Source: Brachyhypopomus gauderio | Lineage: Eukaryota; Chordata; Actinopteri; Gymnotiformes; Hypopomidae | Direction of reading: 5' to 3' | NCBI RefSeq assembly: GCF_052324685.1 | Contig: NW_027506898.1 | Location: forward strand, 1,371,501 to 1,435,500 | Length of the DNA: 64,000 nt | Shown here: positions 14,029 through 43,314 of the stretch, piece after piece | Position numbering within the stretch: position 1 is the first letter of the stretch | Layout: every line of letters starts with the position of its first letter | The notes under the pieces: generated by a model | What the model was told of the DNA's origin: nothing | The model's input: only the letters and a program-made list of their open reading frames with translations | Database searches by the model: none | Made by a program: the position numbers and the translations under genes

Positions 14029-14100
14029 AGGTTCCACTGAGAGTTGAACTCAGATTGCTGGATTTAGAGTCCAGAGTGCTAACCATTACACCATGGAACC
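14029..14100 (-). tRNA. Putative amber-suppressor tRNA (Gln body, CTA anticodon)
   Basis: Slot-A gene whose anticodon loop is CTCTAAA instead of CTCTGAA: G36 to A changes CTG (reads CAG) to CTA (reads UAG stop). Acceptor, D, anticodon and T stems all pair; A and B boxes, T discriminator and the TTTT terminator are kept. The same one-base change makes the E. coli supE suppressor from tRNA-Gln. Upstream flank is the AAGTTCGG type, as in all 11 CTA copies. Whether it is transcribed, charged or silenced cannot be seen here. Confidence 0.88.
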
Positions 14101-14328
14101 TAAAAGATAAGTTCGGATTCTTCTGTTTTGCTGGGTTCACAGACCAAGTTAAGCTCAAAGTGACTTGTCTTGAGAGGATGCAAGTTGCAACAACTACAGA
14201 CAAGGACTTCCAGCAACAAGATATTTAGTTGAGGTATTCGATTTGGTCAACTGAAAGACACTTTCTGTTTACAGTAGTCTTCAACAATGAAAGCTGGTAC
14301 AATCCCAGATAAAGAGCATGTATCAGAA

Positions 14329-14400
14329 AGGTTCCACCGAGAGTCGAACTCGGATTGCTGGATTCAGAGTCCAGAGTGCTAACCATTACACCATGGAACC
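14329..14400 (-). tRNA. tRNA-Gln (CTG)
   Basis: Slot B, consensus; GTATCAG 3' flank, TACATTAGAC 5' flank. Confidence 0.95.
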
Positions 14401-14627
14401 TACATTAGACATTTCTGAGTCTTGTTTTGCTGGGTTCACAGACCAAGTTAAGCTCAAAGTGACTTGTCATGGGAGAATGCATGTTGCAACAACTACAGAC
14501 AAGGACTTCCAGCAACAAGATAATTAGTTGAGGTATTTGATTTGGTCAACTGAAAGACACTTTCTGTTTACAGTAGTCTTCAACAATGAAAGCTGGTACA
14601 ATCCCAGATAAAGAGCATGTAGCAGAA

Positions 14628-14699
14628 AGGTTCCACCGAGAGTCGAACTCGGATCACTGGATTCAAAGTCCAGAGTGCTGACCATTACACCATGGAACC
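14628..14699 (-). tRNA. tRNA-Gln (TTG)
   Basis: Slot C, consensus. Confidence 0.95.
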
Positions 14700-14727
14700 C
14701 ACAGCAAAAGTTGTTTCTAGCAAATGA

Positions 14728-14839
14728 GTTGCTGGATTCAGAGTCCAGAATGCTAACACCATGGAAACAGCAAATAGGTTTCCAACTTCTCTGCCGTTGA
14801 TTTCAGAGTCTGTTGTGCTTACTACTGCATCACGCAACC
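14728..14839 (-). pseudogene. Decayed tRNA-Gln pair
   Basis: Common form. Confidence 0.78.
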
Positions 14840-15094
14840 AAAGAAATTAGCTTTTGTGAATACTGTTTTGCTGAACACATAGCAAAACATCCTGTCCTGA
14901 GACCCTAGCATATTTGGATTTAAATGACTTCACCAATTCTAGGATAATCAGAAAGCTGTTTGCCACAAGAACAAGCATGTAAAAATTCTGAAAACAATTC
15001 ATGAAATATGCTGGAATTATATAGACCGCAAGCATGTGATAGAGCTTGCATGGAGAAAAGACCTGCAAGCTGGAATCAACACTAATGAATCAAA

Positions 15095-15166
15095 AGGTTC
15101 CACTGAGAGTTGAACTCAGATTGCTGGATTTAGAGTCCAGAGTGCTAACCATTACACCATGGAACC
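15095..15166 (-). tRNA. Putative amber-suppressor tRNA (CTA)
   Basis: Slot A, identical to the gene at 14029. Opens a long 1,366-bp unit. Confidence 0.88.
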
Positions 15167-15394
15167 TAAAAGATAAGTTCGGATTCTTCTGTTTTGCTGG
15201 GTTCACAGACCAAGTTAAGCTCAAAGTGACTTGTCTTGAGAGGATGCAAGTTGCAACAACTACAGACAAGGACTTCCAGCAACAAGATATTTAGTTGAGG
15301 TATTCGATTTGGTCAACTGAAAGACACTTTCTGTTTACAGTAGTCTTCAACAATGAAAGCTGGTACAATCCCAGATAAAGAGCATGTAGCAGAA

Positions 15395-15466
15395 AGGTTC
15401 CACCGAGAGTCGAACTCGGATTGCTGGATTCAGAGTCCAGAGTGCTAACCATTACACCATGGAACC
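15395..15466 (-). tRNA. tRNA-Gln (CTG), B/A hybrid locus
   Basis: Slot-B gene and 3' flank joined to a slot-A upstream flank (CTAAAAGATAAG). This is the reciprocal of the locus at 12197 and marks a crossover inside or beside the tRNA. Confidence 0.95.
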
Positions 15467-15694
15467 TAAAAGATAAGTTCTGATTCTTCTGTTTTGCTGG
15501 GTTCACAGACCAAGTTAAGCTCAAAGTGACTTGTCTTGAGAGGATGCAAGTTGCAACAACTACAGACAAGGACTTCCAGCAACAAGATATTTAGTTGAGG
15601 TATTCGATTTGGTCAACTTAAAGACACTTTCTGTTTACAGTAGTCTTCAACAATGAAAGCTGGTACAATCCCAGATAAAGAGCATGTAGCAGAA

Positions 15695-15766
15695 AGGTTC
15701 CACTGAGAGTCGAACTCGGATTGCTGGATTCAGAGTCCAGAGTGCTAACCATTACACCATGGAACC
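15695..15766 (-). tRNA. tRNA-Gln (CTG), T-stem mismatch
   Basis: Extra slot B, C50-A64 mismatch. Confidence 0.88.
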
Positions 15767-15993
15767 TACATGAGACACTTCTGAGTCTTGTTTTGCTGGG
15801 TTCACAGACCAAGTTAAGCTCAAAGTGACTTGTCATGGGAGAATGCATGTTGCAACAACTACAGACAAGGACTTCCAGCAACAAGATAATTAGTTGAGGT
15901 ATTTGATTTGGTCAACTGAAAGACACTTTCTGTTTACAGTAGTCTTCAACAATGAAAGCTGGTACAATCCCAGATAAAGAGCATGTAGCAGAA

Positions 15994-16065
15994 AGGTTCC
16001 ACCGAGAGTCGAACTCGGATCACTGGATTCAAAGTCCAGAGTGCTGACCATTACACCATGGAACC
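15994..16065 (-). tRNA. tRNA-Gln (TTG)
   Basis: Slot C, consensus. Confidence 0.95.
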
Positions 16066-16093
16066 CACAGCAAAAGTTGTTTCTAGCAAATGA

Positions 16094-16205
16094 GTTGCTG
16101 GATTCAGAGTCCAGAATGCTAACACCATGGAAACAGCAAATAGGTTTCCAACTTCTCTGCCGTTGATTTCAGAGTCTGTTGTGCTTACTACTGCATCACG
16201 CAACC
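16094..16205 (-). pseudogene. Decayed tRNA-Gln pair
   Basis: Common form. Confidence 0.78.
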
Positions 16206-16460
16206 AAAGAAATTAGCTTTTGTGAATACTGTTTTGCTGAACACATAGCAAAACATCCTGTCCTGAGACCCTAGCATATTTGGATTTAAATGACTTCACC
16301 AATTCTAGGATAATCAGAAAGCTGTTCGCCACAAGAACAAGCATGTAAAAATTCTGAAAACAATTCATGAAATATGCTGGAATTATATAGACCGCAAGCA
16401 TGTGATAGAGCTTGCATGGAGAAAAGACCTGCAAGCTGGAATCAACACTAATGAATCAAA

Positions 16461-16532
16461 AGGTTCCACTGAGAGTTGAACTCAGATTGCTGGATTCAGA
16501 GTCCAGAGTGCTAACCATTACACCATGGAACC
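16461..16532 (-). tRNA. tRNA-Gln (CTG)
   Basis: Slot A, consensus. Confidence 0.96.
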
Positions 16533-16760
16533 TAAAAGATAAGTTCTGATTCTTCTGTTTTGCTGGGTTCACAGACCAAGTTAAGCTCAAAGTGACTTGT
16601 CTTGAGAGGATGCAAGTTGCAACAACTACAGACAAGGACTTCCAGCAACAAGATATTTAGTTGAGGTATTCGATTTGGTCAACTGAAAGACACTTTCTGT
16701 TTACAGTAGTCTTCAACAATGAAAGCTGGTACAATCCCAGATAAAGAGCATGTAGCAGAA

Positions 16761-16832
16761 AGGTTCCACCGAGAGTCGAACTCGGATTGCTGGATTCAGA
16801 GTCCAGAGTGCTAACCATTACACCATGGAACC
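16761..16832 (-). tRNA. tRNA-Gln (CTG)
   Basis: Slot B, consensus; CATGACACAC flank, duplicate of 8233. Confidence 0.95.
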
Positions 16833-17059
16833 TACATGACACACTTCTGAGTCTTGTTTTGCTGGGTTCACAGACCAAGTTAAGCTTAAAGTGACTTGTC
16901 ATGGGAGAATGCATGTTGCAACAACTACAGACAAGGACTTCCAGCAACAAGATAATTAGTTGAGGTATTTGATTTGGTCAACTGAAAGACACTTTCTGTT
17001 TACAGTAGTCTTCAACAATGAAAGCTGGTACAATCCCAGATAAAGAGCATGTAGCAGAA

Positions 17060-17131
17060 AGGTTCCACCGAGAGTCGAACTCGGATCACTGGATTCAAAG
17101 TCCAGAGTGCTGACCATTACACCATGGAACC
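17060..17131 (-). tRNA. tRNA-Gln (TTG)
   Basis: Slot C, consensus. Confidence 0.95.
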
Positions 17132-17159
17132 CACAGCAAAAGTTGTTTCTAGCAAATGA

Positions 17160-17271
17160 GTTGCTGGATTCAGAGTCCAGAATGCTAACACCATGGAAAC
17201 AGCAAATAGGTTTCCAACTTCTCTGCCGTTGATTTCAGAGTCTGTTGTGCTTACTACTGCATCACGCAACC
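17160..17271 (-). pseudogene. Decayed tRNA-Gln pair
   Basis: Common form. Confidence 0.78.
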
Positions 17272-17526
17272 AAAGAAATTAGCTTTTGTGAATACTGTTT
17301 TGCTGAACACATAGCAAAACATCCTGTCCTGAGACCCTAGCATATTTGGATTTAAATGACTTCACCAATTCTAGGATAATCAGAAAGCTGTTTGCCACAA
17401 GAACAAGCATGTAAAAATTCTGAAAACAATTCATGAAATATGCTGGAATTATATAGACCGCAAGCATGTGATAGAGCTTGCATGGAGAAAAGACCTGCAA
17501 GCTGGAATCAACACTAATGAATCAAA

Positions 17527-17598
17527 AGGTTCCACTGAGAGTTGAACTCAGATTGCTGGATTCAGAGTCCAGAGTGCTAACCATTACACCATGGAACC
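17527..17598 (-). tRNA. tRNA-Gln (CTG)
   Basis: Slot A, consensus, AAGTTCGG flank. Confidence 0.96.
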
Positions 17599-17826
17599 TA
17601 AAAGATAAGTTCGGATTCTTCTGTTTTGCTGGGTTCACAGACCAAGTTAAGCTCAAAGTGACTTGTCTTGAGAGGATGCAAGTTGCAACAACTACAGACA
17701 AGGACTTCCAGCAACAAGATATTTAGTTGAGGTATTCGATTTGGTCAACTGAAAGACACTTTCTGTTTACAGTAGTCTTCAACAATGAAAGCTGGTACAA
17801 TCCCAGATAAAGAGCATGTATCAGAA

Positions 17827-17898
17827 AGGTTCCACCGAGAGTCGAACTCGGATTGCTGGATTCAGAGTCCAGAGTGCTAACCATTACACCATGGAACC
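17827..17898 (-). tRNA. tRNA-Gln (CTG)
   Basis: Slot B, consensus; GTATCAG flank, duplicate of 9299. Confidence 0.95.
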
Positions 17899-18125
17899 TA
17901 CATGAGACACTTCTGAGTCTTGTTTTGCTGGGTTCACAGACCAAGTTAAGCTCAAAGTGACTTGTCATGGGAGAATGCAGGTTGCAACAACTACAGACAA
18001 GGACTTCCAGCAACAAGATAATTAGTTGAGGTATTTGATTTGGTCAACTGAAAGACACTTTCTGTTTACAGTAGTCTTCAACAATGAAAGCTGGTACAAT
18101 CCCAGATAAAGAGCATGTAGCAGAA

Positions 18126-18197
18126 AGGTTCCACCGAGAGTCGAACTCGGATCACTGGATTCAAAGTCCAGAGTGCTGACCATTACACCATGGAACC
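18126..18197 (-). tRNA. tRNA-Gln (TTG)
   Basis: Slot C, consensus; lacks the stem change of its duplicate at 9598. Confidence 0.95.
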
Positions 18198-18225
18198 CAC
18201 AGCAAAAGTTGTTTCTAGCAAATGA

Positions 18226-18337
18226 GTTGCTGGATTCAGAGTCCAGAATGCTAACACCATGGAAACAGCAAATAGGTTTCCAACTTCTCTGCCGTTGATT
18301 TCAGAGTCTGTTGTGCTTACTACTGCATCACGCAACC
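18226..18337 (-). pseudogene. Decayed tRNA-Gln pair
   Basis: Common form. Confidence 0.78.
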
Positions 18338-18592
18338 AAAGAAATTAGCTTTTGTGAATACTGTTTTGCTGAACACATAGCAAAACATCCTGTCCTGAGA
18401 CCCTAGCATATTTGGATTTAAATGACTTCACCAATTCTAGGATAATCAGAAAGCTGTTTGCCACAAGAATAAGCATGTAAAAATTCTGAAAACAATTCAT
18501 GAAATATGCTGGAATTATATAGACCGCAAGCATGTGATAGAGCTTGCATGGAGAAAAGACCTGCAAGCTGGAATCAACACTAATGAATCAAA

Positions 18593-18664
18593 AGGTTCCA
18601 CTGAGAGTTGAACTCAGATTGCTGGATTCAGAGTCCAGAGTGCTAACCATTACACCATGGAACC
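18593..18664 (-). tRNA. tRNA-Gln (CTG)
   Basis: Slot A, consensus; upstream T run reduced. Confidence 0.95.
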
Positions 18665-18892
18665 TAAAGGATAAGTTCTGATTCTTCTGTTTTGCTGGGT
18701 TCACAGACCAAGTTAAGCTCAAAGTGACTTGTCTTGAGAGGATGCAAGTTGCAACAACTACAGACAAGGACTTCCAGCAACAAGATATTTAGTTGAGGTA
18801 TTCGATTTGGTCAACTGAAAGACACTTTCTGTTTACAGTAGTCTTCAACAATGAAAGCTGGTACAATCCCAGATAAAGAGCATGTAGCAGAA

Positions 18893-18964
18893 AGGTTCCA
18901 CCGAGAGTCGAACTCGGATTGCTGGATTCAGAGTCCAGAGTGCTAACCATTACACCATGGAACC
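18893..18964 (-). tRNA. tRNA-Gln (CTG)
   Basis: Slot B, consensus. Confidence 0.95.
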
Positions 18965-19191
18965 TACATGAGACACTTCTGAGTCTTGTTTTGCTGGGTT
19001 CACAGACCAAGTTAAGCTCAAAGTGACTTGTCATGGGAGAATGCATGTTGCAACAACTACAGACAAGGACTTCCAGCAACAAGATAATTAGTTGAGGTAT
19101 TTGATTTGGTCAACTGAAAGACACTTTCTGTTTACAGTAGTCTTCAACAATGAAAGCTGGTACAATCCCAGATAAAGAGCATGTAGCAGAA

Positions 19192-19263
19192 AGGTTCCAC
19201 CGAGAGTCGAACTCAGATCACTGGATTCAAAGTCCAGAGTGCTGACCATTACACCATGGAACC
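19192..19263 (-). tRNA. tRNA-Gln (TTG)
   Basis: Slot C, T-G wobble at 50:64. Confidence 0.94.
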
Positions 19264-19291
19264 CACAGCAAAAGTTGTTTCTAGCAAATGA

Positions 19292-19403
19292 GTTGCTGGA
19301 TTCAGAGTCCAGAATGCTAACACCATGGAAACAGCAAATAGGTTTCCAACTTCTCTGCCGTTGATTTCAGAGTCTGTTGTGCTTACTACTGCATCACGCA
19401 ACC
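19292..19403 (-). pseudogene. Decayed tRNA-Gln pair
   Basis: Common form. Confidence 0.78.
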
Positions 19404-19658
19404 AAAGAAATTAGCTTTTGTGAATACTGTTTTGCTGAACACATAGCAAAACATCCTGTCCTGAGACCCTAGCATATTTGGATTTAAATGACTTCACCAA
19501 TTCTAGGATAATCAGAAAGCTGTTTGCCACAAGAACAAGCATGTAAAAATTCTGAAAACAATTCATGAAATATGCTGGAATTATATAGACCGCAAGCATG
19601 TGATAGAGCTTGCATGGAGAAAAGACCTGCAAGCTGGAATCAACACTAATGAATCAAA

Positions 19659-19730
19659 AGGTTCCACCGAGAGTTGAACTCAGATTGCTGGATTCAGAGT
19701 CCAGAGTGCTAACCATTACACCATGGAACC
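19659..19730 (-). tRNA. tRNA-Gln (CTG)
   Basis: Slot A with T-G wobble at 50:64. Confidence 0.95.
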
Positions 19731-19958
19731 TAAAAGATAAGTTCTGATTCTTCTGTTTTGCTGGGTTCACAGACCAAGTTAAGCTCAAAGTGACTTGTCT
19801 TGAGAGGATGCAAGTTGCAACAACTACAGACAAGGACTTCCAGCAACAAGATATTTAGTTGAGGTATTCGATTTGGTCAACTGAAAGACACTTTCTGTTT
19901 ACAGTAGTCTTCAACAATGAAAGCTGGTACAATCCAAGATAAAGAGCATGTAGCAGAA

Positions 19959-20030
19959 AGGTTCCACCGAGAGTCGAACTCGGATTGCTGGATTCAAAGT
20001 CCAGAGTGCTAACCATTACACCATGGAACC
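19959..20030 (-). tRNA. tRNA-Gln (TTG) in a slot-B body
   Basis: Duplicate of 11431: C34 to T in a slot-B gene. Confidence 0.94.
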
Positions 20031-20257
20031 TACATGAGACACTTCTGAGTCTTGTTTTGCTGGGTTCACAGACCAAGTTAAGCTCAAAGTGACTTGTCAT
20101 GGGAGAATGCATGTTGCAACAACTACAGACAAGGACTTCCAGCAACAAGATAATTAGTTGAGGTATTTGATTTGGTCAACTGAAAGACACTTTCTGTTTA
20201 CAGTAGTCTTCAACAATGAAAGCTGGTACAATCCCAGATAAAGAGCATGTAGCAGAA

Positions 20258-20329
20258 AGGTTCCACCGAGAGTCGAACTCGGATCACTGGATTCAAAGTC
20301 CAGAGTGCTGACCATTACACCATGGAACC
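20258..20329 (-). tRNA. tRNA-Gln (TTG)
   Basis: Slot C, consensus. Confidence 0.95.
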
Positions 20330-20357
20330 CACAGCAAAAGTTGTTTCTAGCAAATGA

Positions 20358-20469
20358 GTTGCTGGATTCAGAGTCCAGAATGCTAACACCATGGAAACAG
20401 CAAATAGGTTTCCAACTTCTCTGCCGTTGATTTCAGAGTCTGTTGTGCTTACTACTGCATCACGCAACC
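20358..20469 (-). pseudogene. Decayed tRNA-Gln pair
   Basis: Common form. Confidence 0.78.
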
Positions 20470-20724
20470 AAAGAAATTAGCTTTTGTGAATACTGTTTTG
20501 CTGAACACATAGCAAAACATCCTGTCCTGAGACCCTAGCATATTTGGATTTAAATGACTTCACCAATTCTAGGATAATCAGAAAGCTGTTTGCCACAAGA
20601 ATAAGCATGTAAAAATTCTGAAAACAATTCATGAAATATGCTGGAATTATATAGACCGCAAGCATGTGATAGAGCTTGCATGGAGAAAAGACCTGCAAGC
20701 TGGAATCAACACTAATGAATCAAA

Positions 20725-20796
20725 AGGTTCCACTGAGAGTTGAACTCAGATTGCTGGATTCAGAGTCCAGAGTGCTAACCATTACACCATGGAACC
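20725..20796 (-). tRNA. tRNA-Gln (CTG)
   Basis: A/B hybrid locus opening a short 766-bp unit; duplicate of 12197. Confidence 0.95.
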
Positions 20797-21023
20797 TACA
20801 TGAGACACTTCTGAGTCTTGTTTTGCTGGGTTCACAGACCAAGTTAAGCTCAAAGTGACTTGTCATGGGAGAATGCAGGTTGCAACAACTACAGACAAGG
20901 ACTTCCAGCAACAAGATAATTAGTTGAGGTATTTGATTTGGTCAACTGAAAGACACTTTCTGTTTACAGTAGTCTTCAACAATGAAAGCTGGTACAATCC
21001 CAGATAAAGAGCATGTAGCAGAA

Positions 21024-21095
21024 AGGTTCCACCGAGAGTCGAACTCGGATCACTGGATTCAAAGTCCAGAGTGCTGACCATTACACCATGGAACC
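21024..21095 (-). tRNA. tRNA-Gln (TTG)
   Basis: Slot C, consensus, short unit. Confidence 0.95.
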
Positions 21096-21123
21096 CACAG
21101 CAAAAGTTGTTTCTAGCAAATGA

Positions 21124-21235
21124 GTTGCTGGATTCAGAGTCCAGAATGCTAACACCATGGAAACAGCAAATAGGTTTCCAACTTCTCTGCCGTTGATTTC
21201 AGAGTCTGTTGTGCTTACTACTGCATCACGCAACC
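21124..21235 (-). pseudogene. Decayed tRNA-Gln pair
   Basis: Common form. Confidence 0.78.
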
Positions 21236-21490
21236 AAAGAAATTAGCTTTTGTGAATACTGTTTTGCTGAACACATAGCAAAACATCCTGTCCTGAGACC
21301 CTAGCATATTTGGATTTAAATGACTTCACCAATTCTAGGATAATCAGAAAGCTGTTTGCCACAAGAACAAGCATGTAAAAATTCTGAAAACAATTCATGA
21401 AATATGCTGGAATTATATAGACCGCAAGCATGTGATAGAGCTTGCATGGAGAAAAGACCTGCAAGCTGGAATCAACACTAATGAATCAAA

Positions 21491-21562
21491 AGGTTCCACT
21501 GAGAGTTGAACTCAGATTGCTGGATTCAGAGTCCAGAGTGCTAACCATTACACCATGGAACC
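21491..21562 (-). tRNA. tRNA-Gln (CTG)
   Basis: Slot A, consensus. Confidence 0.96.
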
Positions 21563-21790
21563 TAAAAGATAAGTTCTGATTCTTCTGTTTTGCTGGGTTC
21601 ACAGACCAAGTTAAGCTCAAAGTGACTTGTCTTGAGAGGATGCAAGTTGCAACAACTACAGACAAGGACTTCCAGCAACAAGATATTTAGTTGAGGTATT
21701 CGATTTGGTCAACTTAAAGACACTTTCTGTTTACAGTAGTCTTCAACAATGAAAGCTGGTACAATCCCAGATAAAGAGCATGTAGCAGAA

Positions 21791-21862
21791 AGGTTCCACT
21801 GAGAGTCGAACTCGGATTGCTGGATTCAGAGTCCAGAGTGCTAACCATTACACCATGGAACC
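21791..21862 (-). tRNA. tRNA-Gln (CTG), T-stem mismatch
   Basis: Slot B, C50-A64 mismatch; duplicate of 13263. Confidence 0.88.
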
Positions 21863-22089
21863 TACATGAGACACTTCTGAGTCTTGTTTTGCTGGGTTCA
21901 CAGACCAAGTTAAGCTCAAAGTGACTTGTCATGGGAGAATGCATGTTGCAACAACTACAGACAAGGACTTCCAGCAACAAGATAATTAGTTGAGGTATTT
22001 GATTTGGTCAACTGAAAGACACTTTCTGTTTACAGTAGTCTTCAACAATGAAAGCTGGTACAATCCCAGATAAAGAGCATGTAGCAGAA

Positions 22090-22161
22090 AGGTTCCACCG
22101 AGAGTCGAACTCGGATCACTGGATTCAAAGTCCAGAGTGCTGACCATTACACCATGGAACC
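22090..22161 (-). tRNA. tRNA-Gln (TTG)
   Basis: Slot C, consensus. Confidence 0.95.
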
Positions 22162-22189
22162 CACAGCAAAAGTTGTTTCTAGCAAATGA

Positions 22190-22301
22190 GTTGCTGGATT
22201 CAGAGTCCAGAATGCTAACACCATGGAAACAGCAAATAGGTTTCCAACTTCTCTGCCGTTGATTTCAGAGTCTGTTGTGCTTACTACTGCATCACGCAAC
22301 C
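22190..22301 (-). pseudogene. Decayed tRNA-Gln pair
   Basis: Common form. Confidence 0.78.
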
Positions 22302-22556
22302 AAAGAAATTAGCTTTTGTGAATACTGTTTTGCTGAACACATAGCAAAACATCCTGTCCTGAGACCCTAGCATATTTGGATTTAAATGACTTCACCAATT
22401 CTAGGATAATCAGAAAGCTGTTTGCCACAAGAACAAGCATGTAAAAATTCTGAAAACAATTCATGAAATATGCTGGAATTATATAGACCGCAAGCATGTG
22501 ATAGAGCTTGCATGGAGAAAAGACCTGCAAGCTGGAATCAACACTAATGAATCAAA

Positions 22557-22628
22557 AGGTTCCACTGAGAGTTGAACTCAGATTGCTGGATTTAGAGTCC
22601 AGAGTGCTAACCATTACACCATGGAACC
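22557..22628 (-). tRNA. Putative amber-suppressor tRNA (CTA)
   Basis: Slot A, loop CTCTAAA, stems and TTTT intact; 8,528-bp duplicate of 14029. Confidence 0.88.
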
Positions 22629-23227: not shown

Positions 23228-23255
23228 CACAGCAAAAGTTGTTTCTAGCAAATGA

Positions 23256-33721: not shown

Positions 33722-33749
33722 CACAGCAAAAGTTGTTTCTAGCAAATGA

Positions 33750-34715: not shown

Positions 34716-34787
34716 AGGTTCCACCGAGCGTCGAACTCGGATCACTGGATTCAAAGTCCAGAGTGCTGACCATTACACCATGGAACC
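34716..34787 (-). tRNA. tRNA-Gln (TTG)
   Basis: Slot C with T60 to G in the T loop (TTCGACG); followed by another slot C instead of a relic pair. Confidence 0.91.
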
Positions 34788-35014
34788 TACATTAGACATT
34801 TCTGAGTCTTGTTTTGCTGGGTTCACAGACCAAGTTAAGCTCAAAGTGACTTGTCATGGGAGAATGCATGTTGCAACAACTACAGACAACGACTTCCAGC
34901 AACAAGATAATTAGTTGAGGTATTTGATTTGGTCAACTGAAAGACACTTTCTGTTTACAGTAGTCTTCAACAATGAAAGCTGGTACAATCCCAGATAAAG
35001 AGCATGTAGCAGAA

Positions 35015-35086
35015 AGGTTCCACCGAGAGTCGAACTCGGATCACTGGATTCAAAGTCCAGAGTGCTGACCATTACACCATGGAACC
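35015..35086 (-). tRNA. tRNA-Gln (TTG)
   Basis: Second slot C of the long unit, consensus. Confidence 0.95.
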
Positions 35087-35114
35087 CACAGCAAAAGTTG
35101 TTTCTAGCAAATGA

Positions 35115-35226
35115 GTTGCTGGATTCAGAGTCCAGAATGCTAACACCATGGAAACAGCAAATAGGTTTCCAACTTCTCTGCCGTTGATTTCAGAGTCTGT
35201 TGTGCTTACTACTGCATCACGCAACC
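35115..35226 (-). pseudogene. Decayed tRNA-Gln pair
   Basis: Common form. Confidence 0.78.
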
Positions 35227-35481
35227 AAAGAAATTAGCTTTTGTGAATACTGTTTTGCTGAACACATAGCAAAACATCCTGTCCTGAGACCCTAGCATAT
35301 TTGGATTTAAATGACTTCACCAATTCTAGGATAATCAGAAAGCTGTTTGCCACAAGAACAAGCATGTAAAAATTCTGAAAACAATTCATGAAATATGCTG
35401 GAATTATATAGACCGCAAGCATGTGATAGAGCTTGCATGGAGAAAAGACCTGCAAGCTGGAATCAACACTAATGAATCAAA

Positions 35482-35553
35482 AGGTTCCACTGAGAGTTGA
35501 ACTCAGATTGCTGGATTCAGAGTCCAGAGTGCTAACCATTACACCATGGAACC
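35482..35553 (-). tRNA. tRNA-Gln (CTG)
   Basis: Slot A, consensus. Confidence 0.96.
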
Positions 35554-35781
35554 TAAAAGATAAGTTCTGATTCTTCTGTTTTGCTGGGTTCACAGACCAA
35601 GTTAAGCTCAAAGTGACTTGTCTTGAGAGGATGCAAGTTGCAACAACTACAGACAAGGACTTCCAGCAACAAGATATTTAGTTGAGGTATTCGATTTGGT
35701 CAACTGAAAGACACTTTCTGTTTACAGTAGTCTTCAACAATGAAAGCTGGTACAATCCCAGATAAAGAGCATGTAGCAGAA

Positions 35782-35853
35782 AGGTTCCACCGAGAGTCGA
35801 ACTCGGATTGCTGGATTCAGAGTCCAGAGTGCTAACCATTACACCATGGAACC
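35782..35853 (-). tRNA. tRNA-Gln (CTG)
   Basis: Slot B, consensus. Confidence 0.95.
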
Positions 35854-36080
35854 TACATGAGACACTTCTGAGTCTTGTTTTGCTGGGTTCACAGACCAAG
35901 TTAAGCTCAAAGTGACTTGTCATGGGAGAATGCAGGTTGCAACAACTACAGACAAGGACTTCCAGCAACAAGATAATTAGTTGAGGTATTTGATTTGGTC
36001 AACTGAAAGACACTTTCTGTTTACAGTAGTCTTCAACAATGAAAGCTGGTACAATCCCAGATAAAGAGCATGTAGCAGAA

Positions 36081-36152
36081 AGGTTCCACCGAGAGTCGAA
36101 CTCGGATCACTGGATTCAAAGTCCAGAGTGCTGACCATTACACCATGGAACC
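36081..36152 (-). tRNA. tRNA-Gln (TTG)
   Basis: Slot C, consensus. Confidence 0.95.
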
Positions 36153-36180
36153 CACAGCAAAAGTTGTTTCTAGCAAATGA

Positions 36181-36292
36181 GTTGCTGGATTCAGAGTCCA
36201 GAATGCTAACACCATGGAAACAGCAAATAGGTTTCCAACTTCTCTGCCGTTGATTTCAGAGTCTGTTGTGCTTACTACTGCATCACGCAACC
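36181..36292 (-). pseudogene. Decayed tRNA-Gln pair
   Basis: Common form. Confidence 0.78.
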
Positions 36293-36547
36293 AAAGAAAT
36301 TAGCTTTTGTGAATACTGTTTTGCTGAACACATAGCAAAACATCCTGTCCTGAGACCCTAGCATATTTGGATTTAAATGACTTCACCAATTCTAGGATAA
36401 TCAGAAAGCTGTTTGCCACAAGAATAAGCATGTAAAAATTCTGAAAACAATTCATGAAATATGCTGGAATTATATAGACCGCAAGCATGTGATAGAGCTT
36501 GCATGGAGAAAAGACCTGCAAGCTGGAATCAACACTAATGAATCAAA

Positions 36548-36619
36548 AGGTTCCACTGAGAGTTGAACTCAGATTGCTGGATTCAGAGTCCAGAGTGCTA
36601 ACCATTACACCATGGAACC
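36548..36619 (-). tRNA. tRNA-Gln (CTG)
   Basis: Slot A, consensus; upstream T run reduced. Confidence 0.95.
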
Positions 36620-36847
36620 TAAAGGATAAGTTCTGATTCTTCTGTTTTGCTGGGTTCACAGACCAAGTTAAGCTCAAAGTGACTTGTCTTGAGAGGATGC
36701 AAGTTGCAACAACTACAGACAAGGACTTCCAGCAACAAGATATTTAGTTGAGGTATTCGATTTGGTCAACTGAAAGACACTTTCTGTTTACAGTAGTCTT
36801 CAACAATGAAAGCTGGTACAATCCCAGATAAAGAGCATGTAGCAGAA

Positions 36848-36919
36848 AGGTTCCACCGAGAGTCGAACTCGGATTGCTGGATTAAGAGTCCAGAGTGCTA
36901 ACCATTACACCATGGAACC
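36848..36919 (-). tRNA. Gln-body tRNA with CTT (Lys) anticodon
   Basis: Slot B with G36 to T: loop CTCTTAA, anticodon CTT, which pairs with AAG (Lys). Every stem pairs and the body is otherwise consensus. If made, it would be charged by whichever synthetase recognises it; the Gln acceptor stem and T discriminator argue against clean Lys identity. Only copy in the window. Confidence 0.85.
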
Positions 36920-37146
36920 TACATGAGACACTTCTGAGTCTTGTTTTGCTGGGTTCACAGACCAAGTTAAGCTCAAAGTGACTTGTCATGGGAGAATGCA
37001 GGTTGCAACAACTACAGACAAGGACTTCCAGCAACAAGATAATTAGTTGAGGTATTTGATTTGGTCAACTGAAAGACACTTTCTGTTTACAGTAGTCTTC
37101 AACAATGAAAGCTGGTACAATCCCAGATAAAGAGCATGTAGCAGAA

Positions 37147-37218
37147 AGGTTCCACCGAGAGTCGAACTCGGATCACTGGATTCAAAGTCCAGAGTGCTGA
37201 CCATTACACCATGGAACC
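37147..37218 (-). tRNA. tRNA-Gln (TTG)
   Basis: Slot C, consensus. Confidence 0.95.
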
Positions 37219-37246
37219 CACAGCAAAAGTTGTTTCTAGCAAATGA

Positions 37247-37358
37247 GTTGCTGGATTCAGAGTCCAGAATGCTAACACCATGGAAACAGCAAATAGGTTT
37301 CCAACTTCTCTGCCGTTGATTTCAGAGTCTGTTGTGCTTACTACTGCATCACGCAACC
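37247..37358 (-). pseudogene. Decayed tRNA-Gln pair
   Basis: Common form. Confidence 0.78.
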
Positions 37359-37613
37359 AAAGAAATTAGCTTTTGTGAATACTGTTTTGCTGAACACATA
37401 GCAAAACATCCTGTCCTGAGACCCTAGCATATTTGGATTTAAATGACTTCACCAATTCTAGGATAATCAGAAAGCTGTTTGCCACAAGAACAAGCATGTA
37501 AAAATTCTGAAAACAATTCATGAAATATGCTGGAATTATATAGACCGCAAGCATGTGATAGAGCTTGCATGGAGAAAAGACCTGCAAGCTGGAATCAACA
37601 CTAATGAATCAAA

Positions 37614-37685
37614 AGGTTCCACTGAGAGTTGAACTCAGATTGCTGGATTCAGAGTCCAGAGTGCTAACCATTACACCATGGAACC
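37614..37685 (-). tRNA. tRNA-Gln (CTG)
   Basis: Slot A, consensus, AAGTTCGG flank. Confidence 0.96.
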
Positions 37686-37913
37686 TAAAAGATAAGTTCG
37701 GATTCTTCTGTTTTGCTGGGTTCACAGACCAAGTTAAGCTCAAAGTGACTTGTCTTGAGAGGATGCAAGTTGCAACAACTACAGACAAGGACTTCCAGCA
37801 ACAAGATATTTAGTTGAGGTATTCGATTTGGTCAACTGAAAGACACTTTCTGTTTACAGTAGTCTTCAACAATGAAAGCTGGTACAATCCCAGATAAAGA
37901 GCATGTAGCAGAA

Positions 37914-37985
37914 AGGTTCCACCGAGAGTCGAACTCGGATTGCTGGATTCAGAGTCCAGAGTGCTAACCATTACACCATGGAACC
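37914..37985 (-). tRNA. tRNA-Gln (CTG)
   Basis: Slot B, consensus. Confidence 0.95.
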
Positions 37986-38212
37986 TACATGAGACACTTC
38001 TGAGTCTTGTTTTGCTGGGTTCACAGACCAAGTTAAGCTCAAAGTGACTTGTCATGGGAGAATGCATGTTGCAACAACTACAGACAAGGACTTCCAGCAA
38101 CAAGATAATTAGTTGAGGTATTTGATTTGGTCAACTGAAAGACACTTTCTGTTTACAGTAGTCTTCAACAATGAAAGCTGGTACAATCCCAGATAAAGAG
38201 CATGTAGCAGAA

Positions 38213-38284
38213 AGGTTCCACCGAGAGTCGAACTCGGATCACTGGATTCAAAGTCCAGAGTGCTGACCATTACACCATGGAACC
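38213..38284 (-). tRNA. tRNA-Gln (TTG)
   Basis: Slot C, consensus. Confidence 0.95.
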
Positions 38285-38312
38285 CACAGCAAAAGTTGTT
38301 TCTAGCAAATGA

Positions 38313-38424
38313 GTTGCTGGATTCAGAGTCCAGAATGCTAACACCATGGAAACAGCAAATAGGTTTCCAACTTCTCTGCCGTTGATTTCAGAGTCTGTTG
38401 TGCTTACTACTGCATCACGCAACC
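38313..38424 (-). pseudogene. Decayed tRNA-Gln pair
   Basis: Common form. Confidence 0.78.
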
Positions 38425-38679
38425 AAAGAAATTAGCTTTTGTGAATACTGTTTTGCTGAACACATAGCAAAACATCCTGTCCTGAGACCCTAGCATATTT
38501 GGATTTAAATGACTTCACCAATTCTAGGATAATCAGAAAGCTGTTTGCCACAAGAACAAGCATGTAAAAATTCTGAAAACAATTCATGAAATATGCTGGA
38601 ATTATATAGACCGCAAGCATGTGATAGAGCTTGCATGGAGAAAAGACCTGCAAGCTGGAATCAACACTAATGAATCAAA

Positions 38680-38751
38680 AGGTTCCACTGAGAGTTGAAC
38701 TCAGATTGCTGGATTTAGAGTCCAGAGTGCTAACCATTACACCATGGAACC
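38680..38751 (-). tRNA. Putative amber-suppressor tRNA (CTA)
   Basis: Slot A; second 4,563-bp copy. Confidence 0.88.
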
Positions 38752-38979
38752 TAAAAGATAAGTTCGGATTCTTCTGTTTTGCTGGGTTCACAGACCAAGT
38801 TAAGCTCAAAGTGACTTGTCTTGAGAGGATGCAAGTTGCAACAACTACAGACAAGGACTTCCAGCAACAAGATATTTAGTTGAGGTATTCGATTTGGTCA
38901 ACTGAAAGACACTTTCTGTTTACAGTAGTCTTCAACAATGAAAGCTGGTACAATCCCAGATAAAGAGCATGTAGCAGAA

Positions 38980-39051
38980 AGGTTCCACCGAGAGTCGAAC
39001 TCGGATTGCTGGATTCAGATTCCAGAGTGCTAACCATTACACCATGGAACC
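38980..39051 (-). tRNA. tRNA-Gln (CTG), C32A loop
   Basis: Slot B, loop ATCTGAA; D loop normal. Confidence 0.9.
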
Positions 39052-39278
39052 TACATTAGACATTTCTGAGTCTTGTTTTGCTGGGTTCACAGACCAAGTT
39101 AAGCTCAAAGTGACTTGTCATGGGAGAATGCATGTTGCAACAACTACAGACAAGGACTTCCAGCAACAAGATAATTAGTTGAGGTATTTGATTTGGTCAA
39201 CTGAAAGACACTTTCTGTTTACAGTAGTCTTCAACAATGAAAGCTGGTACAATCCCAGATAAAGAGCATGTAGCAGAA

Positions 39279-39350
39279 AGGTTCCACCGAGCGTCGAACT
39301 CGGATCACTGGATTCAAAGTCCAGAGTGCTGACCATTACACCATGGAACC
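39279..39350 (-). tRNA. tRNA-Gln (TTG)
   Basis: Slot C with T60 to G. Confidence 0.91.
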
Positions 39351-39577
39351 TACATTAGACATTTCTGAGTCTTGTTTTGCTGGGTTCACAGACCAAGTTA
39401 AGCTCAAAGTGACTTGTCATGGGAGAATGCATGTTGCAACAACTACAGACAACGACTTCCAGCAACAAGATAATTAGTTGAGGTATTTGATTTGGTCAAC
39501 TGAAAGACACTTTCTGTTTACAGTAGTCTTCAACAATGAAAGCTGGTACAATCCCAGATAAAGAGCATGTAGCAGAA

Positions 39578-39649
39578 AGGTTCCACCGAGAGTCGAACTC
39601 GGATCACTGGATTCAAAGTCCAGAGTGCTGACCATTACACCATGGAACC
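39578..39649 (-). tRNA. tRNA-Gln (TTG)
   Basis: Second slot C of the long unit, consensus. Confidence 0.95.
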
Positions 39650-39677
39650 CACAGCAAAAGTTGTTTCTAGCAAATGA

Positions 39678-39789
39678 GTTGCTGGATTCAGAGTCCAGAA
39701 TGCTAACACCATGGAAACAGCAAATAGGTTTCCAACTTCTCTGCCGTTGATTTCAGAGTCTGTTGTGCTTACTACTGCATCACGCAACC
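39678..39789 (-). pseudogene. Decayed tRNA-Gln pair
   Basis: Common form. Confidence 0.78.
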
Positions 39790-40044
39790 AAAGAAATTAG
39801 CTTTTGTGAATACTGTTTTGCTGAACACATAGCAAAACATCCTGTCCTGAGACCCTAGCATATTTGGATTTAAATGACTTCACCAATTCTAGGATAATCA
39901 GAAAGCTGTTTGCCACAAGAACAAGCATGTAAAAATTCTGAAAACAATTCATGAAATATGCTGGAATTATATAGACCGCAAGCATGTGATAGAGCTTGCA
40001 TGGAGAAAAGACCTGCAAGCTGGAATCAACACTAATGAATCAAA

Positions 40045-40116
40045 AGGTTCCACTGAGAGTTGAACTCAGATTGCTGGATTCAGAGTCCAGAGTGCTAACC
40101 ATTACACCATGGAACC
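40045..40116 (-). tRNA. tRNA-Gln (CTG)
   Basis: Slot A, consensus. Confidence 0.96.
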
Positions 40117-40344
40117 TAAAAGATAAGTTCTGATTCTTCTGTTTTGCTGGGTTCACAGACCAAGTTAAGCTCAAAGTGACTTGTCTTGAGAGGATGCAAG
40201 TTGCAACAACTACAGACAAGGACTTCCAGCAACAAGATATTTAGTTGAGGTATTCGATTTGGTCAACTGAAAGACACTTTCTGTTTACAGTAGTCTTCAA
40301 CAATGAAAGCTGGTACAATCCCAGATAAAGAGCATGTAGCAGAA

Positions 40345-40416
40345 AGGTTCCACCGAGAGTCGAACTCGGATTGCTGGATTCAGAGTCCAGAGTGCTAACC
40401 ATTACACCATGGAACC
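40345..40416 (-). tRNA. tRNA-Gln (CTG)
   Basis: Slot B, consensus. Confidence 0.95.
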
Positions 40417-40643
40417 TACATGAGACACTTCTGAGTCTTGTTTTGCTGGGTTCACAGACCAAGTTAAGCTCAAAGTGACTTGTCATGGGAGAATGCAGGT
40501 TGCAACAACTACAGACAAGGACTTCCAGCAACAAGATAATTAGTTGAGGTATTTGATTTGGTCAACTGAAAGACACTTTCTGTTTACAGTAGTCTTCAAC
40601 AATGAAAGCTGGTACAATCCCAGATAAAGAGCATGTAGCAGAA

Positions 40644-40715
40644 AGGTTCCACCGAGAGTCGAACTCGGATCACTGGATTCAAAGTCCAGAGTGCTGACCA
40701 TTACACCATGGAACC
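40644..40715 (-). tRNA. tRNA-Gln (TTG)
   Basis: Slot C, consensus. Confidence 0.95.
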
Positions 40716-40743
40716 CACAGCAAAAGTTGTTTCTAGCAAATGA

Positions 40744-40855
40744 GTTGCTGGATTCAGAGTCCAGAATGCTAACACCATGGAAACAGCAAATAGGTTTCCA
40801 ACTTCTCTGCCGTTGATTTCAGAGTCTGTTGTGCTTACTACTGCATCACGCAACC
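40744..40855 (-). pseudogene. Decayed tRNA-Gln pair
   Basis: Common form. Confidence 0.78.
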
Positions 40856-41110
40856 AAAGAAATTAGCTTTTGTGAATACTGTTTTGCTGAACACATAGCA
40901 AAACATCCTGTCCTGAGACCCTAGCATATTTGGATTTAAATGACTTCACCAATTCTAGGATAATCAGAAAGCTGTTTGCCACAAGAATAAGCATGTAAAA
41001 ATTCTGAAAACAATTCATGAAATATGCTGGAATTATATAGACCGCAAGCATGTGATAGAGCTTGCATGGAGAAAAGACCTGCAAGCTGGAATCAACACTA
41101 ATGAATCAAA

Positions 41111-41182
41111 AGGTTCCACTGAGAGTTGAACTCAGATTGCTGGATTCAGAGTCCAGAGTGCTAACCATTACACCATGGAACC
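41111..41182 (-). tRNA. tRNA-Gln (CTG)
   Basis: Slot A, consensus; upstream T run reduced. Confidence 0.95.
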
Positions 41183-41410
41183 TAAAGGATAAGTTCTGAT
41201 TCTTCTGTTTTGCTGGGTTCACAGACCAAGTTAAGCTCAAAGTGACTTGTCTTGAGAGGATGCAAGTTGCAACAACTACAGACAAGGACTTCCAGCAACA
41301 AGATATTTAGTTGAGGTATTCGATTTGGTCAACTGAAAGACACTTTCTGTTTACAGTAGTCTTCAACAATGAAAGCTGGTACAATCCCAGATAAAGAGCA
41401 TGTAGCAGAA

Positions 41411-41482
41411 AGGTTCCACCGAGAGTCGAACTCGGATTGCTGGATTCAGAGTCCAGAGTGCTAACCATTACACCATGGAACC
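41411..41482 (-). tRNA. tRNA-Gln (CTG)
   Basis: Slot B, consensus; equivalent of the CTT gene at 36848 but with normal CTG. Confidence 0.95.
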
Positions 41483-41709
41483 TACATGAGACACTTCTGA
41501 GTCTTGTTTTGCTGGGTTCACAGACCAAGTTAAGCTCAAAGTGACTTGTCATGGGAGAATGCAGGTTGCAACAACTACAGACAAGGACTTCCAGCAACAA
41601 GATAATTAGTTGAGGTATTTGATTTGGTCAACTGAAAGACACTTTCTGTTTACAGTAGTCTTCAACAATGAAAGCTGGTACAATCCCAGATAAAGAGCAT
41701 GTAGCAGAA

Positions 41710-41781
41710 AGGTTCCACCGAGAGTCGAACTCGGATCACTGGATTCAAAGTCCAGAGTGCTGACCATTACACCATGGAACC
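41710..41781 (-). tRNA. tRNA-Gln (TTG)
   Basis: Slot C, consensus. Confidence 0.95.
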
Positions 41782-41809
41782 CACAGCAAAAGTTGTTTCT
41801 AGCAAATGA

Positions 41810-41921
41810 GTTGCTGGATTCAGAGTCCAGAATGCTAACACCATGGAAACAGCAAATAGGTTTCCAACTTCTCTGCCGTTGATTTCAGAGTCTGTTGTGC
41901 TTACTACTGCATCACGCAACC
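41810..41921 (-). pseudogene. Decayed tRNA-Gln pair
   Basis: Common form. Confidence 0.78.
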
Positions 41922-42176
41922 AAAGAAATTAGCTTTTGTGAATACTGTTTTGCTGAACACATAGCAAAACATCCTGTCCTGAGACCCTAGCATATTTGGA
42001 TTTAAATGACTTCACCAATTCTAGGATAATCAGAAAGCTGTTTGCCACAAGAACAAGCATGTAAAAATTCTGAAAACAATTCATGAAATATGCTGGAATT
42101 ATATAGACCGCAAGCATGTGATAGAGCTTGCATGGAGAAAAGACCTGCAAGCTGGAATCAACACTAATGAATCAAA

Positions 42177-42248
42177 AGGTTCCACTGAGAGTTGAACTCA
42201 GATTGCTGGATTCAGAGTCCAGAGTGCTAACCATTACACCATGGAACC
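42177..42248 (-). tRNA. tRNA-Gln (CTG)
   Basis: Slot A, consensus, AAGTTCGG flank. Confidence 0.96.
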
Positions 42249-42476
42249 TAAAAGATAAGTTCGGATTCTTCTGTTTTGCTGGGTTCACAGACCAAGTTAA
42301 GCTCAAAGTGACTTGTCTTGAGAGGATGCAAGTTGCAACAACTACAGACAAGGACTTCCAGCAACAAGATATTTAGTTGAGGTATTCGATTTGGTCAACT
42401 GAAAGACACTTTCTGTTTACAGTAGTCTTCAACAATGAAAGCTGGTACAATCCCAGATAAAGAGCATGTAGCAGAA

Positions 42477-42548
42477 AGGTTCCACCGAGAGTCGAACTCG
42501 GATTGCTGGATTCAGAGTCCAGAGTGCTAACCATTACACCATGGAACC
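42477..42548 (-). tRNA. tRNA-Gln (CTG)
   Basis: Slot B, consensus. Confidence 0.95.
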
Positions 42549-42775
42549 TACATGAGACACTTCTGAGTCTTGTTTTGCTGGGTTCACAGACCAAGTTAAG
42601 CTCAAAGTGACTTGTCATGGGAGAATGCATGTTGCAACAACTACAGACAAGGACTTCCAGCAACAAGATAATTAGTTGAGGTATTTGATTTGGTCAACTG
42701 AAAGACACTTTCTGTTTACAGTAGTCTTCAACAATGAAAGCTGGTACAATCCCAGATAAAGAGCATGTAGCAGAA

Positions 42776-42847
42776 AGGTTCCACCGAGAGTCGAACTCGG
42801 ATCACTGGATTCAAAGTCCAGAGTGCTGACCATTACACCATGGAACC
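42776..42847 (-). tRNA. tRNA-Gln (TTG)
   Basis: Slot C, consensus. Confidence 0.95.
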
Positions 42848-42875
42848 CACAGCAAAAGTTGTTTCTAGCAAATGA

Positions 42876-42987
42876 GTTGCTGGATTCAGAGTCCAGAATG
42901 CTAACACCATGGAAACAGCAAATAGGTTTCCAACTTCTCTGCCGTTGATTTCAGAGTCTGTTGTGCTTACTACTGCATCACGCAACC
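42876..42987 (-). pseudogene. Decayed tRNA-Gln pair
   Basis: Common form. Confidence 0.78.
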
Positions 42988-43242
42988 AAAGAAATTAGCT
43001 TTTGTGAATACTGTTTTGCTGAACACATAGCAAAACATCCTGTCCTGAGACCCTAGCATATTTGGATTTAAATGACTTCACCAATTCTAGGATAATCAGA
43101 AAGCTGTTTGCCACAAGAACAAGCATGTAAAAATTCTGAAAACAATTCATGAAATATGCTGGAATTATATAGACCGCAAGCATGTGATAGAGCTTGCATG
43201 GAGAAAAGACCTGCAAGCTGGAATCAACACTAATGAATCAAA

Positions 43243-43314
43243 AGGTTCCACTGAGAGTTGAACTCAGATTGCTGGATTTAGAGTCCAGAGTGCTAACCAT
43301 TACACCATGGAACC
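43243..43314 (-). tRNA. Putative amber-suppressor tRNA (CTA)
   Basis: Slot A; third 4,563-bp copy and rightmost CTA gene. Confidence 0.88.

What the first reader, a model, noticed from the sequence alone, without database searches (positions are those of the whole stretch)
14029..43314. Eleven-copy family of putative amber-suppressor tRNA genes (Gln body, CTA anticodon)
Slot-A genes at 14029, 15095, 22557, 23623, 24989, 26055, 27421, 28487, 34117, 38680 and 43243 carry G36 to A, so the anticodon is CTA and would read UAG. Unlike most variants here they break no stem, keep both internal promoter boxes and have the best terminator of the three slots. The same base change in tRNA-Gln gives the classical E. 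coli supE suppressor, and ciliates that read UAG as Gln use tRNA-Gln(CUA). Eleven apparently sound suppressor genes in a nuclear genome would be a translational hazard unless silent, tissue-restricted or useful.
Basis: partly seen in the sequence, partly recalled or inferred. Interest (0 to 1): 0.9.

Follow-up and report, generated by a model that had tools for sequence, protein, structure and literature searches.

The report
Amber-reading tRNA copies in giant array
In one animal genome, a huge block of glutamine tRNA genes contains some intact copies whose anticodon would read the stop codon UAG; they look like one mutation copied along with the block, and whether any are expressed is untested.

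Summary
Confirmed: 11 slot-A tRNA-Gln genes in the window carry CTA; their bodies are identical and are the common slot-A body plus G36>A. The fetched contig end has 17 among 586 Gln genes; an exact pattern finds 17 in the 796.5-Mb assembly, all there. 13 of 17 have perfect stems; 4, outside the window, break T-stem pair 50-64.

Many copies share near-identical blocks of up to 12 kb. The allele's frequency fits spacer SNPs; its scatter is at their upper end. Slot-A genes are no less variable than their spacers. Chance plus array duplication explains the family; no selection is seen. Two eRF1 loci keep their stop-reading motifs.

The array cannot simply be called dead: outside C54 and C69, the capped listings show one Gln gene (TTG), and the conventional isolated CTG type has no match. 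Spacer CpG depletion (0.15 against 0.58 in the flank) suggests germline methylation. Expression, charging and readthrough are untested.

Best reading: neutral, array-borne potential amber suppressors, about 1.5% of Gln genes, mostly silent or weakly expressed.

The parts
14029..14100 (-). tRNA-Gln body, anticodon CTA (anticodon at 14065-14067), slot A
15095..15166 (-). tRNA-Gln(CTA), slot A
22557..22628 (-). tRNA-Gln(CTA), slot A
23623..23694 (-). tRNA-Gln(CTA), slot A
24989..25060 (-). tRNA-Gln(CTA), slot A
26055..26126 (-). tRNA-Gln(CTA), slot A
27421..27492 (-). tRNA-Gln(CTA), slot A
28487..28558 (-). tRNA-Gln(CTA), slot A
34117..34188 (-). tRNA-Gln(CTA), slot A
38680..38751 (-). tRNA-Gln(CTA), slot A
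43243..43314 (-). tRNA-Gln(CTA), slot A
14028..16459 (-). 2,432-bp double unit carrying two CTA genes; the same gene order again at 22556, 24988 and 27420
   Evidence: positions, gene order, block comparison
34116..38678 (-). 4,563-bp higher-order block with one CTA gene; further CTA genes at the same period at 38679 and 43242
1..64000 (-). part of the tandem tRNA-Gln array (182 genes here; unit transcribed C, then usually one or more B, then A)
   Evidence: Gln genes run from C54:1295686 to 1499832 near the contig end, with one 3,178-bp break, and go on at the start of contig C69

Best explanation
These are ordinary slot-A copies of a very large tandem tRNA-Gln array in which G36 mutated to A once or a few times, giving anticodon CUA. 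The allele was then multiplied by segmental duplication and exchange within the array. Shown: sequence, intact fold and promoter boxes, terminator, copy blocks, neutral-like frequency, and confinement, as far as searched, to one 96-kb part of one array. Inferred: selection neither favoured nor removed the copies because they are about 1.5% of Gln genes in a redundant, germline-methylated array where most copies are probably silent or weakly used. If a copy is transcribed, it would most likely give a weakly charged Gln-tRNA(CUA) that competes poorly with a normal eRF1 at UAG.
For: One base separates the CTA body from 36 CTG copies in the window. Many copies share near-identical blocks, e.g. 12,000 bp with 14 mismatches, 10,800 bp with 17, 7,200 bp with 26. 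The allele count, 17 of 153 aligned slot-A cassettes, is matched or exceeded by 6 of 79 spacer minor alleles; slot-A genes (12 of 71 sites variable) are not more conserved than their spacers (72 of 624; Fisher p = 0.18). Fewest changes on a cassette tree with its own column left out: 7 for CTA (17 copies); 6 for 5'-16C (17 copies), 3 for 5'-111C (17), 7 for 5'-176G (23), 7 for 3'+353A (29). CTC and CTT arose at the same position, one copy each. CpG observed/expected is 0.15 in spacers, 0.48 in the genes and 0.58 in the flank, and all six CpG positions of the gene body vary. Two eRF1 loci carry intact TASNIKS and YLCDNKF.
Against: The array is nearly the only tRNA-Gln source found: the capped listings show C54 and C69 apart from one isolated Gln-TTG gene in C12, and the conventional isolated Gln-CTG type has 0 matches. 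Part of it should therefore be active, and silence of the CTA copies is an assumption. In zebrafish, isodecoders present in eggs are encoded in repetitive regions (PMC11417395, passages). CTA is the commonest body variant of slot A by far (17 copies, next 5). Its changes per copy (7 of 17) are reached by 5 of 26 spacer alleles, all with 8 or fewer copies; among the 8 spacer alleles with 13 or more copies none reaches it (highest 0.38). Distinct alleles at the three anticodon positions are in mild excess (5, P = 0.033 under my weights). CTA occurs with both alleles of a site about 16 nt 5' of the gene and also with a changed position 50, so it either moved by exchange or arose more than once. 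No block over 1,500 bp joins the four copies with the changed position 50 to the other 13.
Confidence: 0.72

Rival explanations
1. Active amber suppressors: the CTA genes are transcribed with the array, perhaps in the oocyte, charged with Gln by GlnRS, and cause measurable UAG readthrough.
For: Intact fold, boxes 17 of 17 and T4 at the slot-A gene end; the array is almost the only Gln source found; zebrafish isodecoders present in eggs come from repetitive regions (PMC11417395, passages). Suppressor tRNAs work in Xenopus oocytes (PMC8244042, passages).
Against: No selection signal; CpG decay of the spacers; zebrafish tRNA genes in large clusters are almost fully CpG-methylated in early embryos (PMC11574265, passages); G36 contributes to binding and recognition by E. 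coli GlnRS (PMC9976931, passages); 4 of 17 copies have a broken T-stem pair.
Confidence: 0.15
2. Selected function: the suppressor copies are maintained to tune readthrough of particular UAG-ended messages.
For: 17 copies, 13 with perfect stems, all in the slot with the best terminator; scatter on the cassette tree at the upper end of the spacer alleles.
Against: Frequency is that of spacer SNPs; confined to 96 kb of one contig, none found elsewhere by exact pattern; the terminator belongs to slot A as a whole.
Confidence: 0.03
3. Genetic-code change of the ciliate kind (UAG = Gln).
For: Gln body with CUA anticodon.
Against: Two eRF1 loci with intact TASNIKS and YLCDNKF; CTA genes are 17 of about 1,150.
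Confidence: 0.01
4. Assembly or base-calling error.
For: Long arrays are hard to assemble; C54 ends and C69 begins inside the array.
Against: The change recurs in 17 copies on three linked backgrounds; it makes a run of only three bases; it was not found in the other roughly 1,130 copies. Reads were not available.
Confidence: 0.05
5. Dead copies: slot A, or the whole array, is decaying and never transcribed. This overlaps with the best explanation and is its strictest form.
For: CpG decay; all three CpGs of the ordinary body are lost in slot A; two decayed tRNA-Gln relics per unit, seen by eye.
Against: 13 of 17 have perfect stems; the array is nearly the only Gln source found.
Confidence: 0.2

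Closest known systems
E. coli supE (glnV, tRNA-Gln CUG>CUA; recalled, not looked up)
   Same: Same base change G36>A in a tRNA-Gln body
   Different: supE is an expressed, selected suppressor; here neither expression nor suppression is known
C. elegans tRNA-Trp amber suppressors sup-5, sup-7, sup-33 and others (PMC4999229, passages)
   Same: One member of a redundant, identical gene family changed to CUA in an animal; animals viable and fertile
   Different: Found in suppressor screens, Trp body, activity shown; here a natural Gln array allele of unknown activity
Planarian predicted Sup-TTA family, 17 genes at 52 loci, and a Sup-CTA (PMC7962491, passages)
   Same: Multi-copy predicted suppressor tRNA genes in an animal genome
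   Different: Ochre anticodon for the large family; array structure not described in the passages seen
Zebrafish large tRNA clusters (PMC11574265 and PMC11417395, passages)
   Same: Thousands of tRNA genes in repeats, mostly CpG-methylated in embryos; a predicted Sup-TTA was clustered with Lys-TTT reads
   Different: No CTA Gln family in the passages seen; zebrafish also has isolated genes scattered over the genome, whereas here one isolated Gln gene was listed
Ciliate tRNA-Gln(CUA) (recalled)
   Same: Gln tRNA with CUA anticodon
   Different: There UAG is a sense codon with altered termination; here the eRF1 motifs are standard

Membership tests
Functional amber suppressor tRNA (supE-like) | CUA anticodon in an otherwise normal tRNA-Gln body | tested here: met
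Functional amber suppressor tRNA (supE-like) | Intact cloverleaf | tested here: met
   for the gene at 14029; on the contig 0 mispairs in 13 of 17 and 1 in 4 of 17
Functional amber suppressor tRNA (supE-like) | Internal Pol III promoter boxes and a T4 terminator | tested here: met
   boxes in 17 of 17 CTA genes; T4 at the gene end in 153 of 154 slot-A genes; T4 at the end of all 11 CTA genes of the window
Functional amber suppressor tRNA (supE-like) | Transcribed, matured and charged | not testable with these tools
   no RNA data; G36 contributes to recognition by E. coli GlnRS (PMC9976931, passages)
Functional amber suppressor tRNA (supE-like) | Reads UAG in cells | not testable with these tools
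   needs a reporter or ribosome profiling
Ciliate-type UAG reassignment | eRF1 changed at the stop-reading motifs | tested here: not met
   TASNIKS and YLCDNKF intact in C5 and C10. A third, best-scoring match in C3 shows no NIKS in its plus-strand frames and was not identified
tRNA pseudogene | Broken stems or lost promoter boxes | tested here: not met
   stems intact in 13 of 17, one mispair in 4 of 17, boxes in 17 of 17
tRNA-Pyl (ARAGORN label) | A body of tRNA-Pyl type | tested here: not met
   the body is the Gln slot-A body plus one base, so the label rests on the anticodon; no tRNA-Pyl was compared
Tandem-array SNP spread by concerted evolution | Shared flanking blocks, and frequency and scatter like spacer alleles | tested here: met
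   scatter is at the upper end of the spacer alleles

The most novel reading that the evidence does not exclude
The array is the egg-type tRNA supply of this animal, and its CTA copies put a small natural pool of Gln-tRNA(CUA) into oocytes, so that UAG-ended maternal messages are read through at a low, heritable rate that varies between individuals with array copy number.
Probability: 0.1. Interest if true: 0.8.

Novelty: new member of a known kind. Interest (0 to 1): 0.42.

Why it matters
It gives a natural experiment on how many intact suppressor genes an animal tolerates. If the copies are expressed, stop-codon reading could differ between tissues or individuals; if silent, it shows how well array tRNA genes are shut off. 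It also warns that tRNA annotation by anticodon in long arrays reports mutations, not functions. A broader lead is that nearly all Gln genes found in this assembly lie in one giant array, and that a Glu pattern shows a similar arrangement.

Tried and rejected
Rejected: code reassignment (eRF1 motifs intact at two loci). Rejected: special selection for the allele, as not needed by the data, though its scatter is at the upper end of the spacer alleles. Rejected as a general argument: 'the array is dead, so the copies do not matter', because almost no other Gln gene was found. Rejected: a recalled yeast parallel, sup70-65, because its abstract says it suppresses by first-base wobble (PMC3664417, start of abstract in the listing).

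Led nowhere: Rfam on 1 kb at E up to 5 gave two tRNAs and two weak hits far below their cut-offs. Pfam on three of the 14 flank ORF pieces printed gave DUF4371 and DDE_3 (I read these as transposon remains) and nothing for the third. A search for Glu position-36 variants gave 0, but its positive control did not complete, so that zero is inconclusive. The species was not identified; 'fish-like' rests on transposon types and two eRF1 loci and is an inference. Literature: ten searches; I saw no report of a CTA tRNA-Gln family in a vertebrate array in those listings and the passages read, which does not prove that none is in print.

Limits: one of 154 slot-A genes is not in the cassette alignment (153 aligned), and columns with over 10% gaps were left out of the site counts. 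The conservation test covers slot A; slots B and C were compared with their flanks in the window only, and the gene's diversity lay below both flanks in B and between them in C (the B 5' flank is inflated by misaligned sequence at the edge of slot B). The simulation uses weights of my own choice and a hand-made allele list. The tree test assumes a tree, which exchange violates. Place lists of genome searches are cut at about 100 rows, so 'only C12, C54, C69' is what was listed; the strand counts are whole. C69 was read over its first 4,000 bases only. Position-36 variants on C69 were sought by exact pattern only.
Full report
Observation. ARAGORN finds 182 tRNA genes in the window, all on the minus strand, 11 of them with anticodon CTA at the stated places. 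A substitution-only scan gives 182 bodies in 28 distinct sequences; the 11 CTA bodies are one sequence, the body of 36 CTG copies plus G36>A. The window's slots are A 55 (43 CTG, 11 CTA, 1 CTC), B 71 (59 CTG, 7 TTG, 4 CCG, 1 CTT), C 55 (all TTG), and one unassigned gene at the edge. In the stretch given to Rfam, two CTA genes score 65.9 bits, two slot-B CTG genes 65.6, a third 59.5, and two slot-C genes 68.8. The CTA gene at 14029 folds as a cloverleaf of the same energy as a CTG slot-A gene.

Extent. The window is C54:1371501-1435500 of a 796.5-Mb, 840-contig assembly. I fetched C54:1241501-1500095. It holds 586 Gln genes from 1295686 to 1499832, all on the minus strand, 17 of them CTA; ARAGORN gives 587. 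There is one 3,178-bp break. The array runs to near the contig end and resumes at the start of contig C69. A pattern with up to 3 mismatches finds 1,152 minus-strand and 1 plus-strand match in the assembly. The plus-strand one is an isolated Gln-TTG gene in C12. The exact CTA pattern occurs 17 times, all on C54; a pattern for any base but G at position 36 occurs 19 times (17 CTA, 1 CTT, 1 CTC), all on C54. No conventional isolated Gln-CTG sequence is found. A tRNA-Glu pattern with up to 2 mismatches has 477 minus-strand matches and no plus-strand one; those listed lie at about 970-bp spacing in C1:52.04-52.14 Mb and at the start of C71, plus one isolated copy in C1. Whether that array holds Glu genes only was not checked.

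Are the CTA genes sound? A and B boxes fit the consensus in 17 of 17. Stems have no mispair in 13 of 17; the four at C54:1462009, 1467768, 1476257 and 1481250 carry an extra change that breaks T-stem pair 50-64. Among slot-A CTG genes 12 of 136 have a mispair. T4 stands at the gene end in 153 of 154 slot-A genes; its first T is the discriminator base, and another T4 lies 36 nt on in 153 of 154. Slot C has no T4 before the next gene in 152 of 155; slot B has none in 135 of 277 and in 134 more only just before the next gene. The slot-A terminator is thus a property of the slot. G36>A also makes A36-A37-A38, the recalled motif for i6A37; that is from memory and untested.

How did eleven, or seventeen, arise? 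Many copies share near-identical blocks, e.g. 34118/38681 over 12,000 bp with 14 mismatches and 14030/22558 over 10,800 bp with 17; other pairs share only 1,600-3,000 bp, and the four with the changed position 50 share blocks over 1,500 bp only in pairs among themselves. Three linked backgrounds exist: 11 copies with C at 5'-16, 2 without it, and 4 with the changed position 50. CTG copies with C at 5'-16 also exist, so exchange or more than one origin is needed. On trees of the slot-A cassette built without the tested column, CTA needs 7 changes for 17 copies (shuffled labels 13-14); spacer alleles need 6 for 17 (5'-16C), 3 for 17 (5'-111C), 7 for 23 (5'-176G) and 7 for 29 (3'+353A). Per copy, 5 of 26 spacer alleles scatter as much or more, all of them with 8 or fewer copies; none of the 8 with 13 or more copies does. 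CTA is confined to C54:1385530-1481320, 96 kb, with 0 of 53 slot-A genes in the four 20-kb bins before and 8 of 18 in its densest bin.

Selection. In 153 aligned slot-A cassettes 12 of 71 gene sites and 72 of 624 spacer sites vary (Fisher p = 0.18; diversity 0.0077 in the gene, 0.0114 in the 5' and 0.0064 in the 3' spacer). Six of 79 spacer minor alleles are as frequent as CTA or more, but CTA is the commonest body variant (17, next 5). Among 53 distinct body alleles CTA would occur with P = 0.34 under my weights; five alleles in the anticodon is a mild excess (P = 0.033); all three alternatives at position 36 has P = 0.010 for that site but 0.60 for any site. Nothing here demands selection for or against CTA.

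Silent or active? Spacer CpG observed/expected is 0.15, against 0.48 in the genes and 0.58 in 42 kb of flank, with TpG and CpA raised, and all six CpG positions of the body vary. I read this as long germline methylation. In zebrafish, tRNA genes in large clusters are almost fully CpG-methylated in early embryos and most predicted genes show no open chromatin there (PMC11574265, passages), yet isodecoders present in eggs are encoded in repetitive regions (PMC11417395, passages). Because the array is nearly the only Gln source found in this assembly, it can hardly be silent everywhere at all times. Expression of the CTA copies is therefore open.

Would it hurt? C. elegans CUA mutants of single tRNA-Trp genes develop and are fertile but sick, while promoter-less sup-7 is lethal (PMC4999229, passages). 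Orthogonal suppressor tRNAs are described as heritable and tolerable in zebrafish and mice (PMC8244042, passages). G36 contributes to binding and recognition by E. coli GlnRS (PMC9976931, passages), so charging may be weaker. Two eRF1 loci have intact TASNIKS and YLCDNKF, so UAG is most likely still a stop; a third match in C3 has no NIKS in its plus-strand frames and was not identified.

Verdict. Predicted suppressor tRNA genes are already known in animals: planarian Sup-TTA and Sup-CTA (PMC7962491, passages) and zebrafish Sup-TTA (PMC11417395, passages). I rate it a new member of a known kind, worth one cheap test in tRNA-seq data.

Noticed in passing
C54:1295686-1500095, C69 start (L047), C1:52043200-52135887, C71 start: Nearly all tRNA-Gln matches (1,153 with up to 3 mismatches) lie in one giant array, and 477 tRNA-Glu pattern matches show a similar arrangement, with one isolated gene of each in the capped listings. 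The purity of the Glu array was not checked.
   Followed up: partly
window, every unit; e.g. 14030-14700: Transcribed order is C, then B, then A, with T4 at the end of A (153 of 154) and none after C (152 of 155): either a multi-gene Pol III transcript or non-canonical ends. A shuffle gives P(no T4) = 0.15 for the C-B spacer, so chance is possible.
   Followed up: partly
spacer between A and the next C, e.g. 14704-15092: Two decayed tRNA-Gln relics per unit, seen by eye in the spacer.
   Followed up: no
slot A bodies, window-wide: All three CpGs of the ordinary Gln body are lost in the common slot-A body; pair 50-64 went from C-G to U-A, so the T stem is kept.
   Followed up: partly
47040-47113, 48107-48180, 52373-52446, 54805-54878: Four slot-B genes with anticodon CCG (Arg) and two mispairs each.
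   Followed up: no
36847-36920 and 51006-51079: Single genes with anticodon CTT (Lys) in slot B and CTC (Glu) in slot A on sound stems: potential missense tRNAs.
   Followed up: no
L046 (C12:4361700-4362300): The one isolated Gln-TTG gene differs from the array copies in variable loop and T loop and has its own T5 run downstream; possibly a somatic type.
   Followed up: partly
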